Shown here: one piece after another, positions 26,321 through 33,863 of the stretch | Position numbering within the stretch: position 1 is the first letter of the stretch | Layout: every line of letters begins with the position of its first letter | NCBI GenBank assembly: GCA_903944895.1 | Contig: CAJATL010000357.1 | Coordinates: 1-34,098 of the forward strand | DNA length: 34,098 bases | Source of the DNA: an uncultured Bacteroidota bacterium | Lineage (GTDB): Bacteria > Bacteroidota > Bacteroidia > Bacteroidales > 4484-276 | Reading direction: 5' to 3' | Translations under genes and position numbers: made by a program | The notes under the pieces: model-generated | Databases searched by the model: none | What the model saw: the letters and a program-made list of their open reading frames with translations, nothing else | What the model was told of the DNA's origin: nothing

Positions 26321-27244
26321 TTACCCTCCAAAAGGTAAAAACCTCGGAACCTTTTTCTGATGGGCAACATAGTCGGGATATTTGCTTTTGCTGATCTCTT
26401 CACTGAAATTTGAACTGCCCTGAAAAAGCAGAATCAGTAACAAGCTGCCGGTAATGCTCCAGTTAAACCACTGACCGCTTGCAGCAACGCTAAAAAAGTA
26501 AAAACAAACCCAGACAGCCTGCTCGGCAAAGTAATTTGGGTGGCGGCTGTAAGCCCAAAGGCCCTTGTCTAAAAATCCCCTTTTATAGTCGCCGGAAAGC
26601 GCTTCTCCGGCTTTGATTTTTGCCCATTTCTGGCTTTGAAAATTCCAGTGCTGGATGTCGGCCAAGGTTTCATAACCAATAAAAAAGAACATCAGTCCGG
26701 CAACGATAAAGTCGAAAATGCCTAAAGGCACCGCATTGTTTTGGAGGGCAACGATGGTAGGTAAGGTAAATAGCAAAATGAGGACATTTTGATACCCAGA
26801 AATAAACAGCATGTTAAAAAGTGACCATTTCCACCGTGGATTAAACTCGGGTTTTTGGCGCAGCACCTGCCAGCGGTAATCTTCTTCACCAGACCAGAAA
26901 CGCCATTGATAGGCTCCTTTCCGTGCAAAATTTGCAGTCAATCTTACGCCCCAAAGTGTAACCAGAACGCTCATCAGCACGAGCCGCGGCGCGTAATTGC
27001 TGTAATCGGCAACAACCCAGGTGTAGGCTATTGGCAGGATGCTCCAGAGTTTGTCAACCTGGCTATTGTTATTCGAAAGTTCGCCAACAATAAAGCAATA
27101 TCCCGCAACAATGGCGGTAGTGATGACCAGGGTGTTTATGGCCTTCCATGCTTCGGGGCCTGGCGAAGTACCGAAAAAGTAGCTGAAAACCGGAACAGCC
27201 AGCAGAGTAATTCCCAATAAAATTGCAGTGGTTATTATTTTCAT
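26321..27244 (-). CDS. DUF1295-family (steroid 5-alpha-reductase-like) membrane protein
   Basis: Polytopic inner-membrane protein of 307 aa. Family signatures are QVDKLWSILPIAYTW, TLWGVRLTANFARKGAY with GEEDYRW, and the C-terminal GLWAYSRHPNYFAEQAVW block that resembles the NADPH-binding region of steroid 5-alpha-reductase and isoprenylcysteine methyltransferase relatives. The exact reaction is not known for bacterial DUF1295 proteins. It starts 29 nt after the stop of the AlgX-like gene and converges on ilvA with a 22-nt gap, so it is probably the last gene of the MBOAT operon. Whether it works with the acylation system or is just cotranscribed is open. Confidence 0.88.
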   Translation of the reverse strand: MKIITTAILLGITLLAVPVFSYFFGTSPGPEAWKAINTLVITTAIVAGYCFIVGELSNNNSQVDKLWSILPIAYTWVVADYSNYAPRLVLMSVLVTLWGVRLTANFARKGAYQWRFWSGEEDYRWQVLRQKPEFNPRWKWSLFNMLFISGYQNVLILLFTLPTIVALQNNAVPLGIFDFIVAGLMFFFIGYETLADIQHWNFQSQKWAKIKAGEALSGDYKRGFLDKGLWAYSRHPNYFAEQAVWVCFYFFSVAASGQWFNWSITGSLLLILLFQGSSNFSEEISKSKYPDYVAHQKKVPRFLPFGG

Positions 27245-27273
27245 AAATATGGTTTTTGCTGGTTATCGCTTCC

Positions 27274-28587
27274 TTATTTATTATTTTGCTGAATTTGCCA
27301 GGTAGCATCCAGGGTTATCATCGAATCGACACTGATTTTTCTTTTGGCAGCTTTCTTCATTATTTCTTCCATCCATTTTTTATCTGATTTAATATAAAGG
27401 CGGGCTGCATCCAGCTTTTCCCGGAAATCAGCATCAAAAGCATGTACTTGTTTTTCGCTGTAAAACAAATTCCAGGCATTCTCGATAAAGCCCCAGCCCA
27501 GGCCGGGTAAGTTTGCCTCGGTAGCCATGATGATAATCACATCATGTTGCGCAATTTGTGCCCGTAAATCCAACTGACTGGTTTCTAAAGGCGATTTAAA
27601 ACTATCGGGGTAAACTTGCTTGTTATAGTACCAAAAATGATCGTTTGAAAAGGCTTTTGAAATCCCGAAATTGAACATGTCCCAATAATAGCTATCAGAA
27701 ATCATCAGTACCGAGGGTCTGGTTTTGCCTTCATTGGCTTGAATTTGAAGATTTGGATAAGCCATGTCGAAAGTTTTGAGTCTGAATTTGATATTCATCC
27801 CATCGGCGATATCATAATCACTGATTTTTGGTGATGCCAGTTCAATCGTATCCCAATACAAATCCGGCATATCGATATTGCGGGTTTTTTCGATAAAACG
27901 TATCATCGAGTCAGCGGCCAGGCTCATGCCATAATAGCTCCAGTGAATCCCGTATTGCGGGTAAAGCGGGTATTTTGACTTACTTTTTTGTTCGACAAAA
28001 TATTTATTGAAATCGATAAATTTCAAACCCAGATTTTGCGCAAGCTCAACATGTTTCTCGTAATTTGTTACGCCTTTTTCTCTTTTCACTTTATCAGGAA
28101 AATATTCGGGATAAAACGAACCTTTGCCGGCAGCAAAAACCAACATCATGGTTTTGTTGAGTTTTGACAGTGTATCCTGAATAAATTTAAGCCGCTGCAT
28201 CCGGTTACTGATGCTGTCGTCACCAATAAAATCAGTTCCATAATAAGCCTTGATGTAGTTTTCTTCAAATAAATAATTCTTCTTGCCAACAATTACACCG
28301 TTGGCTTTCGCTTTGTTAAACACGCTAAAAGCGATCTGGTTGTTGGCGCGGACAAAGAGGTTTCGAAAACCAAAAGTTTCGTTTAAATAGGTTTCCTGTT
28401 GCTTCTGATATTCGTCCGAAAACCAGTCATTAAAAGTAAAACGTGGCTCCTCGTGCTGCGTAATAGAGCCTTTCAAAGGTGCAAGGTCCATAAAATGGAG
28501 TTTTCCCTGGATAAAAGGAATAATCAGAAAGAGCATGATCATGAAAAACAGACCGCTTTTTATTTTGATATTTAAATTTTTCATCAT
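27274..28587 (-). CDS. AlgX/AlgJ-like SGNH-type protein, partner of the MBOAT O-acyltransferase
   Basis: Protein of 437 aa with one N-terminal membrane anchor or uncleaved signal (about 12-27) and a periplasmic domain. It matches the alginate O-acetylation AlgX/AlgJ group: N-terminal ENRF-like region (DEYQKQQETYLNETFGFRN), GKKNYLFEENYI, and MISDSYYWDMF with the presumed nucleophile Ser299. The histidine motif reads YGIHWSYYG (His215), where characterised AlgX has DTHW, so the acidic partner two residues before the histidine is glycine here. Its role would be acyl transfer to a polymer together with the MBOAT protein. Start ATGs at 28587 and 28584 are both possible; the first overlaps the MBOAT stop (TAATG), implying translational coupling. 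Confidence 0.85.
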   Translation of the reverse strand: MMKNLNIKIKSGLFFMIMLFLIIPFIQGKLHFMDLAPLKGSITQHEEPRFTFNDWFSDEYQKQQETYLNETFGFRNLFVRANNQIAFSVFNKAKANGVIVGKKNYLFEENYIKAYYGTDFIGDDSISNRMQRLKFIQDTLSKLNKTMMLVFAAGKGSFYPEYFPDKVKREKGVTNYEKHVELAQNLGLKFIDFNKYFVEQKSKSKYPLYPQYGIHWSYYGMSLAADSMIRFIEKTRNIDMPDLYWDTIELASPKISDYDIADGMNIKFRLKTFDMAYPNLQIQANEGKTRPSVLMISDSYYWDMFNFGISKAFSNDHFWYYNKQVYPDSFKSPLETSQLDLRAQIAQHDVIIIMATEANLPGLGWGFIENAWNLFYSEKQVHAFDADFREKLDAARLYIKSDKKWMEEIMKKAAKRKISVDSMITLDATWQIQQNNK

Positions 28588-30011
28588 TAAAATCTGAAAT
28601 AAATAAACGGATTAAAGCCAAAAGCAGTGATGGAGCTAAGCGCAAAAACAAAAAGCACCAATGTTGCTGCCGAAACAATCAGATGCCTGCTGTTGGAATA
28701 ATCTCCGAAATAGATGGCGTCCTGTATGATCTGCCCTTTACGGAACCAGGCAAAAAAAGCAAAGAAAACGGCGATAACGAAAAAGGTAATGAACTCCGGA
28801 TCGGGCAGCAACCCGGTTTTAAAATAAAACGAAAACATTCGTGTTAAATAGGTAAGGGCATCTGGTAAATGTTCAATCCTGAAAAATACCCATCCAATCA
28901 CAACCACAAAAAAGGTGATGATGGTACTCGGAAGTTTTCCGATTCTTTTGTAAACATCGTTTAAAAACAACCTTTCGAGCACCAGGAATAAGCCGTGATA
29001 CGCGCCCCAGATCACAAAACTCCAGGATGCGCCGTGCCATAAACCCGAAGCCAGAAACACAAACCAGAGGTTAAAGTACAACCGTCGTTTGGAAGCCACC
29101 CTGTTGCCGCCGAGCGGTATGTACAAATAACTCCGCATCCAGGCGCCCAGCGAGATGTGCCACCGTCGCCAGAATTCGGAAATACTTTGCGAAATGTAAG
29201 GGTTGTTGAAGTTCTCCGGAAATTTGAAGCCAATCATTTTGGCCAGCCCGATGGCCATATCCGAATAGCCTGAGAAGTCGAAATAAATCTGAAAAGTATA
29301 GGCCAGAATCCCAATCCAGGCGGTAAAAGTATCAAGCTGGCCATAATTCATCGCAAAAATGGTGTCAGCCTGCAGGCCCATGTGATTTGCAATAAGCACT
29401 TTTTTTGAAAGCCCGATTACAAAACGGTAAAACCCGGTGAGCCGGTTATCAATCGTATCATTTTGGGTGCGGTCGGTTATCTGATCGGCCAGGTCGTGGT
29501 AACGGATAATGGGGCCGGCAATGAGTTTCGGGAATAAAATGATGTAAAGCTGGTAATCCCAGAAGTTGTGTAATGGCTTGTGAACCCGCCGGTAAACATC
29601 AACAACATAGGTAATTGTTTCGAAAGTGTAAAACGAAATCCCGATAGGTAGCACCAACTTGGTCCAATGAATATTACCATCGCCAAACACCGATAAAACG
29701 GAGTTTACATTTTCGATAAAGAAGTTGGAGTATTTGAAATAAAACAACAGCCCGATATTCACCGAAACAGATAAAGTGAGCATTAACCGCCGCTGCAACT
29801 GGTTTTTGGTTGCCGACATCCATTTTACCAGATGAAAATCGAGAAAAGTAGTACCGAGAATTACGAAGATAAACCTGGGAGCACCCCAACTGTAAAAGAA
29901 AATGCTGAAGAGGAGGATAACGATGTTTTTGTACTTCTTGTCGGCCAGATAATAGGTCAGCAAAAATGCCGGCAAAAAGAACAGAAGAAAAACGATACTG
30001 CTAAAAACCAT
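28587..30011 (-). CDS. AlgI/DltB-type MBOAT membrane O-acyltransferase
   Basis: Polytopic 474-aa enzyme that passes an acyl group from the cytoplasm across the inner membrane for O-acylation of an extracytoplasmic polymer. Signatures are LPIGISFYTFETITYVVDVYR, FPKLIAGPI, YFDFSGYSDMAIGLAKMIG, the EFWRRWHISLGAWMRSYLYI block (His285) and the membrane-embedded catalytic histidine in GLWHGASWSFVIWG (His326). Length is normal. Its stop overlaps the start of the AlgX-like gene by one base, the standard two-gene acylation unit. The polymer acylated here is unknown: no alginate or teichoic acid genes lie nearby. Confidence 0.92.
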   Translation of the reverse strand: MVFSSIVFLLFFLPAFLLTYYLADKKYKNIVILLFSIFFYSWGAPRFIFVILGTTFLDFHLVKWMSATKNQLQRRLMLTLSVSVNIGLLFYFKYSNFFIENVNSVLSVFGDGNIHWTKLVLPIGISFYTFETITYVVDVYRRVHKPLHNFWDYQLYIILFPKLIAGPIIRYHDLADQITDRTQNDTIDNRLTGFYRFVIGLSKKVLIANHMGLQADTIFAMNYGQLDTFTAWIGILAYTFQIYFDFSGYSDMAIGLAKMIGFKFPENFNNPYISQSISEFWRRWHISLGAWMRSYLYIPLGGNRVASKRRLYFNLWFVFLASGLWHGASWSFVIWGAYHGLFLVLERLFLNDVYKRIGKLPSTIITFFVVVIGWVFFRIEHLPDALTYLTRMFSFYFKTGLLPDPEFITFFVIAVFFAFFAWFRKGQIIQDAIYFGDYSNSRHLIVSAATLVLFVFALSSITAFGFNPFIYFRF

Positions 30012-30148: not shown

Positions 30149-30260
30149 AAGAAAAAGATCTGTACGAATCCGTTGTATCTGTCGCGATAGCCATGGCCAT
30201 ACATTTTCATTTCGTGGCATGTGATTTTTCTTCATTTCCACCCGATACGGATGTTTTCTG

Positions 30261-30470
30261 CTATTCCTTGTTCCCTTCCGGTTCCTTTTTCTCTTTTTTG
30301 TTCTCGAAGAATTTCTTCATTTCTTCTGACGGCTTCTTAAAGGATGTTACTGATATTTGTCCCACTTTGCTGTTGTCGTATGGCATCTCCCTTAATGCTT
30401 TTAAGAATTTCTGTCCTGGTGTAAGCGATTTTAGGTCTTGATCTTCTGGGTTTTCTGGTTCTGTTTTCAT
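30261..30470 (-). CDS. Small charged protein of unknown function, paralogue A
   Basis: 69-aa product, rich in Lys and Glu, not recognised. Blocks shared with the gene at 30935 are MKTEPENP, LTPGQKFLK, LREMPYDNSKVGQ and KKEPEGNK. Between the copies the region around residues 39-56 varies most. No signal peptide or membrane segment; the C-terminal third is a lysine/glutamate helix (MKKFFENKKEKKEPEGNKE). Both copies start directly after the same leader (AATTGAAATT then ATG), and matched length and start on this strand favour it over the overlapping plus-strand frame. It probably belongs to an accessory cluster with the two minus-strand genes upstream. Function unknown. Confidence 0.65.
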   Translation of the reverse strand: MKTEPENPEDQDLKSLTPGQKFLKALREMPYDNSKVGQISVTSFKKPSEEMKKFFENKKEKKEPEGNKE

Positions 30471-30552
30471 AATTTCAATTATTCAGGTTGTAATATTTAT
30501 TTCTTAATCATCGGTAAGCATGGTTTCTATGTAATACCAAACTAAACCTTTG

Positions 30553-30807: not shown

Positions 30808-30934
30808 TTTTTATAATTATACCTTAAAAACATATTTTTTCATTTCCATCTCAAATATTTGGTTTGAGCTTTCTCTATTCAATTTCCATCAATGGTGTTT
30901 GTTTTTCATTTTCAATAGTTATAGATATTTACTG

Positions 30935-31144
30935 TTAGTCCTTGTTCCCTTCCGGTTCCTTTTCCTCTTTTTTGTTTGTGAAGAATTTCTTCATGCCTTC
31001 AGATGGTTTGCTGAATGATGTGACGAAAGCCTGACCCACTTTGCTGTTGTCGTATGGCATCTCCCTTAATTCTTTTAAGAATTTCTGTCCTGGTGTAAGG
31101 GGTTTTGGGTCTTGATCTACTGGGTTTTCTGGTTCTGTTTTCAT
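30935..31144 (-). CDS. Small charged protein of unknown function, paralogue B
   Basis: 69-aa partner of the gene at 30261, the same length, with about four fifths identical residues. Differences are concentrated near residues 39-46 (AFVTSFSK here, ISVTSFKK in the other). Nucleotide identity is high through the 5' half and the first bases upstream of the ATG, and falls off outside the genes, so a gene-sized duplication is likely. No export signal. It lies 80 nt downstream of the 664-aa gene and could be its cotranscribed partner. Function unknown. Confidence 0.65.
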   Translation of the reverse strand: MKTEPENPVDQDPKPLTPGQKFLKELREMPYDNSKVGQAFVTSFSKPSEGMKKFFTNKKEEKEPEGNKD

Positions 31145-31223
31145 AATTTCAATTTTTTAGTTGATAATTCTAATGTAGATTCTTTTCAGCCAGATTTATA
31201 CTTAAAACGCAAATACTTTTTTT

Positions 31224-33218
31224 CTAAATAATGTTACCTTGTGTTGGAAATTCTTTTCCAATTTTTAATTTGTTATCATGCGAAATTACTAATTCGCCTT
31301 TGGCTACTTTTTTTTGTATTGCAGCTTCTACTTGAGTGAAGTTGTAATCATAATTCTTCACATAATAATTTATAACATCAATGATGTCCCAATCTATCAT
31401 TTTCTCAAAGAATGAATTTCTAAAATATGAACCACGTAATCGATTGTATCTTGTTTTGTCTGCAGTATAATTTTTTTCTTTTAAGCCAATAAAATTGCTT
31501 TCAAAAAAGCAAAACCGCTTTCTTTCATCAACTTTAATATTTGTCAGTAAACTTCTTGCGTTCGTTTCAGGTCTGAATTTATTGACATAGTCAATAATAT
31601 CTGAAATGTGTTTTGGGCAATCTTCATTAAATAAAAATTCTTCTACAATATCACGAATAGTTCCTCCCTTGATGTTGTCCTTCTCAAATTCCCATTTTCT
31701 AAGTCCATACGCTCCTTTCTGACCAAAATAGACAAACATTTCCTTTTGCCTCCTTAAAACTAAACTCAAATATCCACTTGCGAATTTTAAATCAGAATAA
31801 TTTGTGTCCAACTCAAATGCAATTTGTTCTAAAGTCAATGGTTCATCTGCCTTTTCCAATATTTCATAACAATAATGAAGAATCTTTTTTTTAGGAATGT
31901 TTTCAAATATTATATTACCATAAGGATTTACTTCTACATTGAATTCGGAAAAAATTATTTTCCTACAGGTTGACAGAATTTCATCAAATGATTCTAATGC
32001 CTCTTTTTTAATAAAGTTACTGATGAAATTTTGAAAATTTAATGAGAGTGTTTCGTGCTTTTTATCTTCTCTTTTCAAATAAATATCCTTGATAAAAAAC
32101 TCTAATTCAATAGAATCAAAAAACAAAAGGTCTATTAAATAGTATTTTTGGCTTTTGCTTAAAGAGTTTTTATTTATCCCAATTATTTTAGCAGGATCTA
32201 ATGTAAAATGTGTCTTTTTTAATAAAACTCCAAAAACAAGGGCATAAAATCTTAAATTGAACTTTACTTGTTCTCTTTCATTAATTTTTTCCACCAAAGT
32301 ATTATTAATCAAAATACATTTTTCTGTAAGGTCAATTCCATAACTCATAAGAAATTCAGTGCCAAAATTCGAGATAAACGAAAACCTATTTTCTATAGTT
32401 TCTAATAGTTTTTCTTTAATTTGTCTTATTCTCTCATAGGTGAGACTATGTTTGTTGCCAATTTTAACCATTGTTTCTCCATTCAATTGATCATCAATAA
32501 ACCAGTTCTGGAAAATCTCAATCTCAATTGCTGAAAACAAGGATGAATCTAAAATCAGATTTAAGAGCATAAATAGTTTAATGATGCCATTTTCGTCAAA
32601 TATAGCTTTAAATTGTTCTTCAAAATTGTCAGGAAGTTTTTTGATTGAAGATTTCAGAAACAATAATGCATATTCTTTATTCAATTGATCTTTCTGAGTT
32701 GACAGGGCAATGTCTATTAATTTAATAATTTCAACCTTTAACTGTTCTAATTCTTCTAAAGATTGTTTTCCAATTTTTGGAGATCTTTTAAAGTAAAATG
32801 TATCACTAAGGATTTTTTCAAAAATTTCCAGCATATTAAAATTTCCAGCAATTTGACCGAGGCCGTCATATGCCCTTTTACTCAATTTTGATAAAAGATA
32901 TTCGAAATGTCGGTCTAAAATTTCTATTTGAGGAGAAGTTAGTAAATGTATTTTTTCGAAAATCGTAGCTTTCGTTTTAGTTTCATCAATTGTTAAGCTA
33001 ATAGCATGCGATACGTCTTTATACTTTTTACATATTTTTATTAATTCAATATTTGAATGGCGATCACAACTATTGAGTTTCAAAAAACCCCCATTAATAT
33101 GATAATAATTTAATAATTCACGTAAAGTATTCAAAGAATTGCTTTTACAAACATTTACCGCTCTGTGTGATAAATAATTACTAATATTTTGTTCTATATT
33201 TATTTTATCAAGTGTCAT
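31224..33218 (-). CDS. Multi-HTH protein with RNA polymerase alpha-CTD-like and sigma region-4-like modules
   Basis: 664-aa, very AT-rich gene; cytoplasmic, with no signal or membrane segment. Residues about 12-63 (LSHRAVNVCKSNSLNTLREL) and about 108-163 (LSKRAYDGLG, then KRSPKIGKQSLEEL) resemble the helix-hairpin-helix C-terminal domain of RNA polymerase alpha. Residues about 228-280 read like sigma-70 region 4: IEIEIFQNWF, then ETMVKIGNKHSLTYERIRQIKEKLL. Residues about 450-510 (ILEKADEPLTLEQIAFELD) and 520-595 (TIRDIVEEFLFNEDCPKHISDIIDYV) look like two winged-helix/HARE-HTH-type modules, and a last helix-turn-helix-like piece follows near 620-655. It should bind DNA or the transcription machinery; its biological role is unknown. 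The 193-aa gene lies 63 nt upstream. Confidence 0.72.
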   Translation of the reverse strand: MTLDKINIEQNISNYLSHRAVNVCKSNSLNTLRELLNYYHINGGFLKLNSCDRHSNIELIKICKKYKDVSHAISLTIDETKTKATIFEKIHLLTSPQIEILDRHFEYLLSKLSKRAYDGLGQIAGNFNMLEIFEKILSDTFYFKRSPKIGKQSLEELEQLKVEIIKLIDIALSTQKDQLNKEYALLFLKSSIKKLPDNFEEQFKAIFDENGIIKLFMLLNLILDSSLFSAIEIEIFQNWFIDDQLNGETMVKIGNKHSLTYERIRQIKEKLLETIENRFSFISNFGTEFLMSYGIDLTEKCILINNTLVEKINEREQVKFNLRFYALVFGVLLKKTHFTLDPAKIIGINKNSLSKSQKYYLIDLLFFDSIELEFFIKDIYLKREDKKHETLSLNFQNFISNFIKKEALESFDEILSTCRKIIFSEFNVEVNPYGNIIFENIPKKKILHYCYEILEKADEPLTLEQIAFELDTNYSDLKFASGYLSLVLRRQKEMFVYFGQKGAYGLRKWEFEKDNIKGGTIRDIVEEFLFNEDCPKHISDIIDYVNKFRPETNARSLLTNIKVDERKRFCFFESNFIGLKEKNYTADKTRYNRLRGSYFRNSFFEKMIDWDIIDVINYYVKNYDYNFTQVEAAIQKKVAKGELVISHDNKLKIGKEFPTQGNII

Positions 33219-33281: not shown

Positions 33282-33863
33282 TTAGAACAATTCATTATAG
33301 TGTTCAAAATGCTCCATTTTGTACCAATCAAGAAATGTCGTGAAATTACCGTTAAAATCAAATTGTAGCTTTCTGATCAAAAAGTTTTTATTGTACTTTT
33401 CATCACTAAATTGGCCAATTTGAGGCGCTTTTTCAATAATCAAATTTACTTTGTGTTCATTACTTTGATAATACATTAGCTGCCTGTTTTTATTTAATTT
33501 CCAATGATTTGTTGAATTTACTTTTTTTAATTCAAAATGGTCTGGCCTGTCACCAATTAAGCTAAAAACTAAATTCATTAATCCAAGGATGATTTTTTCG
33601 TTAAGTTCATTCAAATCATTAGTGCCGGAAATTTTCTCCCTTAAGTCTGTACAGTGTTTGATAAGGGTGTTTTTATGTTCCTTATCTGAAATTTCAATGG
33701 TGTTTTGTAAACTTAACTCGATAGACTTGATTATTTTTTCAATACAATATTTCCATTCTGTACTTGTCTTGAATCCAGCGTACTGATGGTATTTCGAGTC
33801 TCCATAAAGTGATTTCAAAAGAATTTCAAAAGAATCACTCAAATTAATTTCTTCATTTTTCAT
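33282..33863 (-). CDS. Hypothetical protein upstream of the multi-HTH gene
   Basis: 193-aa product, not recognised. It is acidic and lysine-rich, with predicted helices in the first 100 residues (EWKYCIEKIIKSIELSLQ, KHCTDLREKISGTNDLNELNEKIILGLMNLVFSL) and a mixed C-terminal half containing NRQLMYYQSNEHKVNLIIEK and FNGNFTTFLDWYKMEHFEHY. No signal peptide and no known catalytic motif. AT content matches the 664-aa gene, which follows after 63 nt on the same strand, so the two are probably one transcription unit and may function together. Confidence 0.65.
   Translation of the reverse strand: MKNEEINLSDSFEILLKSLYGDSKYHQYAGFKTSTEWKYCIEKIIKSIELSLQNTIEISDKEHKNTLIKHCTDLREKISGTNDLNELNEKIILGLMNLVFSLIGDRPDHFELKKVNSTNHWKLNKNRQLMYYQSNEHKVNLIIEKAPQIGQFSDEKYNKNFLIRKLQFDFNGNFTTFLDWYKMEHFEHYNELF

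What the first reader, a model, noticed from the sequence alone, without database searches (positions are those of the whole stretch)
31224..33218. Standalone protein combining alpha-CTD-like, sigma region-4-like and winged-helix modules
The order appears to be two RNA polymerase alpha-CTD-like HhH segments, a sigma-70 region-4-like HTH with a clear ERIRQI core, then two winged-helix/HARE-HTH-like modules. This mimics the promoter-reading parts of RNA polymerase without core-binding sigma domains. In an AT-rich accessory segment it could control a mobile element or take part in defence, for example by hijacking transcription or sensing DNA.
Basis: partly seen in the sequence, partly recalled or inferred. 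Interest (0 to 1): 0.7.

Follow-up and report, generated by a model that had tools for sequence, protein, structure and literature searches.

The report
Orphan RNA-polymerase-parts DNA-binding protein
The gene encodes a DNA-binding protein assembled from the promoter-reading pieces of bacterial RNA polymerase; here it stands alone, but its closest relatives are the first gene of an apparently undescribed four-gene, Dnd-like defence operon, so it is probably a regulator or DNA-targeting subunit.

Summary
Profiles support both alpha-CTDs (E 2e-9, 1e-7) and sigma region 4 (E 3e-7); HARE is likely, not proven; no sigma region 2 was seen. The family is found in Bacteroidota. A clade of ~490-aa forms sits after rpsF-rpsR-rplI-SpoU in 16 of 19 loci and looks vertically inherited. 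The long clade, with the window protein, includes nine loci where the gene heads a tightly coupled operon: alpha/sigma/HARE protein, ~65-aa protein, DndD-type ABC ATPase, DndE-HerA fusion. Elsewhere that DndD/DndE-HerA pair follows DndC, so the alpha/sigma/HARE gene takes the sulfur-transfer enzyme's place. The window copy is an orphan; its genome has no detectable DndE-HerA. Best reading: a promoter-DNA-reading regulator or targeting subunit of a Dnd-like counter-invader operon, surviving alone here. From memory, alpha+sigma+HARE proteins were noted in 2012; I found no description of the operon, in a limited search.

The parts
31224..33218 (-). 664-aa ORF, alpha-CTD x2 / sigma-4 / middle domain / winged helix x3 protein
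   Evidence: homologues at 21-45% identity
33021..33206 (-). alpha-CTD-like domain 1 (residues 5-66)
   Evidence: hhalign to RpoA CTD E 2.4e-9; structure match 1z3e Z 9.1; PDB profile search E 5e-4
32700..32936 (-). alpha-CTD-like domain 2 (residues 95-173)
   Evidence: hhalign E 1e-7; Pfam RNA_pol_A_CTD above cut-off in homologues L086 and L087
32367..32537 (-). sigma-70 region-4-like HTH (residues 228-284), core TYERIRQI
   Evidence: SigA E 3.2e-7 with the family profile; E262, R263, R265 in 29 of 29 members, Q266 in 28 of 29
31899..32351 (-). middle domain (residues 290-440), conserved in the family, fold not assigned
   Evidence: long-form against short-form profile E 2e-32; pLDDT mostly above 75
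31683..31895 (-). winged helix 1, HARE/RNAP-delta-like (residues 442-512)
   Evidence: Z 8.4-8.7 to RNAP delta among many other winged helices; homologue P0003 to RNAP delta E 0.007 and Pfam HARE-HTH E 0.13
31473..31667 (-). winged helix 2, related to winged helix 1 (residues 518-582)
   Evidence: hhalign w1 against w2 E 6e-8; winged-helix matches
31254..31433 (-). C-terminal third winged-helix-like element (residues 596-655), present in some long forms only
   Evidence: model H-H-H-E-E; alignment with L046 and L064
33282..33863 (-). 193-aa ORF 63 bp upstream, same strand; unknown; association not supported
   Evidence: no family above cut-off; one convincing distant relative in the order

Best explanation
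The protein is a sequence-specific DNA-binding regulator or targeting subunit built from RNA-polymerase accessory modules. Two alpha-CTD-like domains would grip A-tract minor groove, sigma region 4 would read a -35-like element in the major groove, and the HARE/delta-like winged helices would add DNA or RNAP contacts. It has no recognisable core-binding, promoter-melting sigma region 2, so it is unlikely to be a complete sigma factor. It belongs to the long clade whose members head a four-gene operon with a ~65-aa protein, DndD and DndE-HerA. There it most likely tells the DndD/DndE-HerA DNA machine where to act, or controls expression of the operon. In the window it is an orphan copy that presumably keeps its own DNA target as a regulator. 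Shown: domains, conserved sigma-4 residues, operon linkage in relatives, absence of DndE-HerA in this genome. Inferred: DNA binding, targeting or regulation, and any defence role.
For: Domain homology. Invariant sigma-4 recognition-helix residues E-R-x-R, and Q in 28 of 29, the positions that read the -35 element in sigma-70 (from general knowledge). Linkage: L079, L081, L082, L083, L086, L087, L101 and L102 show all four genes (in L083 the first gene is cut by the contig start, in L079 its first part is out of the open frame); L080 shows the first two and the start of DndD before the record ends. The ~65-aa gene overlaps the alpha/sigma/HARE stop and the DndD start. The DndD-type protein passes NCBIfam TIGR03185 (277 and 271 bits, cut-off 245.9); its partner matches DndE plus HerA/DndH. 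G095 has the same genes split over two contigs. In G162 and G037 the pair follows a PAPS-reductase-type DndC instead. The tree places the window among long forms, near operon-bearing copies.
Against: No experiment; no DNA target known. The window copy is an orphan and its genome has no DndE-HerA. Its alpha-CTD1 has lost the conserved G and K (D52, H54) and its sigma-4 has Y for R at 261, so DNA affinity may differ. About half of the long forms are orphans. No shared upstream motif was found in nine relatives. The housekeeping-like short clade shows that the family is not intrinsically defensive.
Confidence: 0.5

Rival explanations
1. A cellular transcription regulator unrelated to defence: the same job as the short, vertically inherited form, with the Dnd-like operon being a secondary recruitment.
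For: 19 short forms make one clade (100/99); 16 of 19 lie directly after the SpoU gene of the rpsF-rpsR-rplI cluster; many long forms are orphans among ordinary genes.
Against: The window copy lies in low-GC DNA at a contig end, is absent from the 11 other sampled genomes of its family and groups with long forms, near operon-bearing ones, not with the short clade.
Confidence: 0.27
2. An unusual sigma factor that directs RNAP to special promoters.
For: A true sigma region-4 module; NCBIfam calls the distantly similar MzaA a sigma factor.
Against: No region 2 or region 3 match in Pfam, NCBIfam or PDB searches; similarity to MzaA is confined to the region-4 segment.
Confidence: 0.05
3. An anti-RNAP competitor that occludes promoters or captures RNAP during infection (an anti-phage effector that hijacks transcription).
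For: The recognisable modules resemble peripheral RNAP parts (alpha-CTD, sigma-4, probably delta); association with defence-type genes in relatives.
Against: A short clade in a housekeeping context would be hard to explain for a toxic effector; no test of RNAP binding.
Confidence: 0.1
4. A decaying remnant of a lost DndDE-type operon.
For: No partners adjoin it and DndE-HerA is absent from the genome; loss of conserved alpha-CTD1 residues.
Against: The frame is open over 664 codons with all domains modelled at good confidence; a similarly orphan relative, L084, is intact at 40% identity.
Confidence: 0.08

Closest known systems
Bacterial alpha/sigma/HARE-HTH proteins noted by Aravind and Iyer 2012 (Cell Cycle 11:119; recalled from memory, paper not held)
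   Same: Combination of RNAP alpha-subunit, sigma-factor and HARE-HTH features in one bacterial protein.
   Different: I could not check which proteins they meant; the Dnd-like operon, 65-aa partner, third winged helix and clade structure are described here from the data.
Dnd phosphorothioate modification system (DndC-DndD-DndE) and its CxC/Pbe relatives (PMC10853773)
   Same: Operon relatives have a DndD-type ABC ATPase and a DndE domain; the same kind of DndE-HerA fusion follows DndC and DndD in G162 and G037.
   Different: In the alpha/sigma/HARE operons no DndC lies in the stretches read; its place is taken by the alpha/sigma/HARE gene and a 65-aa gene. The window copy has none of these partners.
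MZA anti-phage system protein MzaA
   Same: Sigma-region-4 segment similar (short form P0003 E 3e-8); a sigma-like protein within a defence operon (PMC9523054 refers to mzaABCDE as validated, with mzaA a sigma factor).
   Different: The window protein scores 10.6 bits against a cut-off of 800, only over region 4; MutL, Z1 or AIPR neighbours were not noticed, though not searched with models.
RNA polymerase alpha-CTD, sigma-70 region 4 and delta subunit
   Same: Domain homology (alpha-CTD and sigma-4 firm, delta/HARE likely).
   Different: Found here in one polypeptide, separate from core-binding parts.

Membership tests
Sigma-70 family sigma factor | Region 4 HTH | tested here: met
   Family profile to SigA E 3.2e-7; homologues P0003 and L086 pass the Pfam cut-off; window protein alone below cut-off
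Sigma-70 family sigma factor | Region 2 (core binding, -10 recognition and melting) | tested here: not met
   No region-2 match in Pfam, NCBIfam or PDB sequence searches
RNAP alpha-CTD homologous domain | Sequence and fold of alpha-CTD | tested here: met
HARE-HTH domain | Match to the HARE-HTH or RNAP-delta model | tested here: inconclusive
   Short-form homologue RNAP delta E 0.007, Pfam HARE-HTH E 0.13; delta Z 8.4-8.7 among many winged helices; window protein itself no sequence hit
Dnd-type system (operon relatives) | DndD ABC ATPase | tested here: met
   TIGR03185 above cut-off in L081 and L087
Dnd-type system (operon relatives) | DndE domain | tested here: met
   Pfam DndE 37.6 bits, cut-off 25 (L047, the same contig as L083)
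Dnd-type system (operon relatives) | DndC sulfur-transfer enzyme beside DndD/DndE | tested here: not met
   tblastn of DndC finds nothing in the operon stretches, with hits in L148 and L149 as controls
Dnd-type system (window) | DndE-HerA in the window's genome | tested here: not met
   No match in G000 while five operon genomes match at 747-976 bits
MzaA (MZA system) | Full-length MzaA match | tested here: not met
   10.6 bits against 800
MzaA (MZA system) | MzaBCDE neighbours | not tested
   Neighbours were read and partly scanned, not searched with MzaBCDE models

The most novel reading that the evidence does not exclude
The DndD/DndE-HerA DNA-scanning machine has been re-equipped: in place of sulfur marking it carries a polypeptide copy of RNA polymerase's promoter-reading parts, so the system would survey promoters or transcription-initiation sites of invading DNA instead of phosphorothioate marks.
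Probability: 0.25. Interest if true: 0.8.

Novelty: new variant of a known kind. Interest (0 to 1): 0.5.

Why it matters
If the operon linkage reflects function, it adds a Dnd-type system without the sulfur-transfer gene at its locus, in which an RNAP-like DNA reader takes that gene's place. It would give a directly testable case of how defence machines choose DNA: by promoter-like features, not by modification marks. The sister clade at a ribosomal-protein locus would show that such a protein can also become a resident regulator of Bacteroidota.

Tried and rejected
Conserved non-coding element: the near-constant gap (171-181 bp) before DndD in operon relatives first looked like one; it is a ~65-aa overlapping ORF. 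Phage, plasmid or viral origin: no match. PADLOC models: none for the window protein. Foldseek on the whole model: no PDB match at E 0.001 or better; one weak viral match over 520 columns with TM 0.10, not used. A second fold, of residues 1-290, was made without an alignment by my own choice and is poor (pLDDT 41); not used. The first alpha-CTD profile contained wrong-strand translations; it was rebuilt by keeping frames with an alpha-CTD motif, which makes that reference set motif-selected but does not touch the query side. Shared operator upstream of the gene: best 12-mer in 5 of 9 sequences against 4 in each of five mononucleotide shuffles, nothing. tRNA near the island end: none. Promoter and terminator scans: at the chance level.

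Full report
Observation. The window is an entire contig (G000:C357, 34098 bases). Its last 4 kb are AT-rich (GC 0.26-0.35 against about 0.44 before) and hold, on the minus strand, a 193-aa ORF (33282-33863) and the 664-aa ORF (31224-33218). The window protein by itself gives only a weak Sigma70_r4 hit in Pfam (E 4e-4, below cut-off), no PADLOC hit and no PDB sequence hit.

Homologues. A search of 59 relatives found matches in five genomes besides its own. A five-sequence profile found 39 of 393 genomes of the order, its own included; a profile of the long forms found 7 of 395 in a draw from the phylum, its own included. A scan of genome contigs with a tighter alignment gave eleven named loci, mostly Bacteroidota MAGs and one Labilibaculum; two records are titled Bacilli and Patescibacteria, which could be transfer or binning error. 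Four of these eleven are the same contigs as loci found earlier.

Domains. With the family the modules become clear. Alpha-CTD1 (residues 5-66): profile against 26 RpoA C-terminal domains E 2.4e-9, PDB alpha E 5e-4, structure match 1z3e Z 9.1. Alpha-CTD2 (95-173): E 1e-7, score 40 against a shuffle maximum of 17, and Pfam RNA_pol_A_CTD above cut-off in L086 and L087. Sigma region 4 (228-284): SigA E 3.2e-7; E262, R263 and R265 are in 29 of 29 aligned members and Q266 in 28. A middle domain (290-440) is conserved between long and short forms but unassigned. Winged helices 1 and 2 (442-582) are related to each other; winged helix 1 matches RNAP delta at Z 8.4-8.7 and, in the short form P0003, RNAP delta at E 0.007 and HARE-HTH at E 0.13. 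Many other winged helices score as well, so HARE is likely but not established. A third winged-helix-like element (596-655) occurs in some long forms; others end instead in helicase-associated repeats (Pfam HA). The model has mean pLDDT 82 and pTM 0.65, so domain folds are usable and their relative placement is not.

Context. In nine loci a long form is followed by a ~65-aa ORF overlapping its stop codon, a ~697-aa ABC ATPase and a ~525-540-aa protein. The ATPase passes NCBIfam DndD; the last protein has an N-terminal DndE domain and a C-terminal HerA/FtsK ATPase resembling that of DndH. All four genes are visible in L079, L081, L082, L083, L086, L087, L101 and L102 (the first gene is cut by the contig start in L083 and its first part is out of frame in L079); L080 ends inside DndD. 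In G095 the set is split between two contig ends. tblastn finds no DndC in these stretches. In G162 and G037 the DndE-HerA fusion instead follows DndC and DndD, and those genomes' alpha/sigma/HARE copies are on other contigs. The window genome has no DndE-HerA at E 1e-10 while five operon genomes match at 747-976 bits. The window copy and L084 (40% identical) are orphans.

Clades. A maximum-likelihood tree of 44 members puts the 19 short forms in one clade (100/99); 16 of these lie directly downstream of the SpoU gene in the rpsF-rpsR-rplI cluster. The window sits with L084 (87/75) near operon-bearing copies; branches there are weakly supported. The operon label needs at least four changes on starred branches, so gain or loss of partners has happened repeatedly. 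Other family members adjoin a 5-methylcytosine methylase and HATPase gene (L088), a radical-SAM and HSP90-like ATPase gene set (L072, L077), or an nSTAND-WD40 and TIR-like set (L014, alpha-CTD part only).

Interpretation. The most economical account is a promoter-DNA-reading regulator or targeting subunit. The sigma-4 residues that read the -35 element in sigma-70 are kept (general knowledge), and the lack of region 2 argues against a working sigma factor. Translational overlap with the 65-aa gene and DndD suggests joint production with the DndD/DndE-HerA machine. Whether it targets that machine or only controls its expression is not decided by these data. For the orphan in the window a regulator role is the more cautious reading.

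Known and new. DndDE-centred systems and HerA capture are described in PMC10853773. The passages I read there and one combined literature search do not mention a sigma/alpha protein with a DndE-HerA fusion; that is a limited search, and supplements were not open to me. A sigma-like MzaA in a validated defence system is cited in PMC9523054. From memory, the 2012 HARE-HTH paper mentions bacterial proteins combining RNAP alpha and sigma features; it is not held, so the architecture should be treated as probably known and the operon as possibly new.

Noticed in passing
30221-30494 and 30895-31168: A 274-nt direct duplication (84% identical) carrying two 69-aa ORFs (30261-30470 and 30935-31144, minus strand); these are the only copies in the genome.
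   Followed up: partly
L049-L059, L061, L065, L066, L068, L012: A ~490-aa sister form (one alpha-CTD, sigma-4, two winged helices) lies directly after the SpoU gene of the rpsF-rpsR-rplI cluster in 16 of 19 loci, as if part of the resident gene set.
   Followed up: yes
L079-L083, L086, L087, L101, L102: A conserved ~65-aa protein between the alpha/sigma/HARE gene and DndD, overlapping both; no function known.
   Followed up: partly
L148:5064-10084, L149:2768-7793: DndE fused to a HerA/FtsK ATPase inside DndC-DndD-DndE operons of the same order.
   Followed up: partly
L072:4067-10103, L077:7510-16465: Longer family members (806 and 866 aa) next to a radical-SAM protein and an HSP90-like ATPase in two families.
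   Followed up: partly
L088:9959-17649: A family member upstream of a 5-methylcytosine methylase, a large HATPase protein and a response-regulator-like gene.
   Followed up: partly
L014:6071-13204: A 349-aa protein with only the alpha-CTD-like part, beside an nSTAND1-WD40 protein and a TIR-like DUF4062 protein.
   Followed up: partly
26321-30011: MBOAT acyltransferase, AlgX-like and DUF1295 genes on the minus strand just before the AT-rich segment, suggesting polysaccharide acetylation.
   Followed up: no
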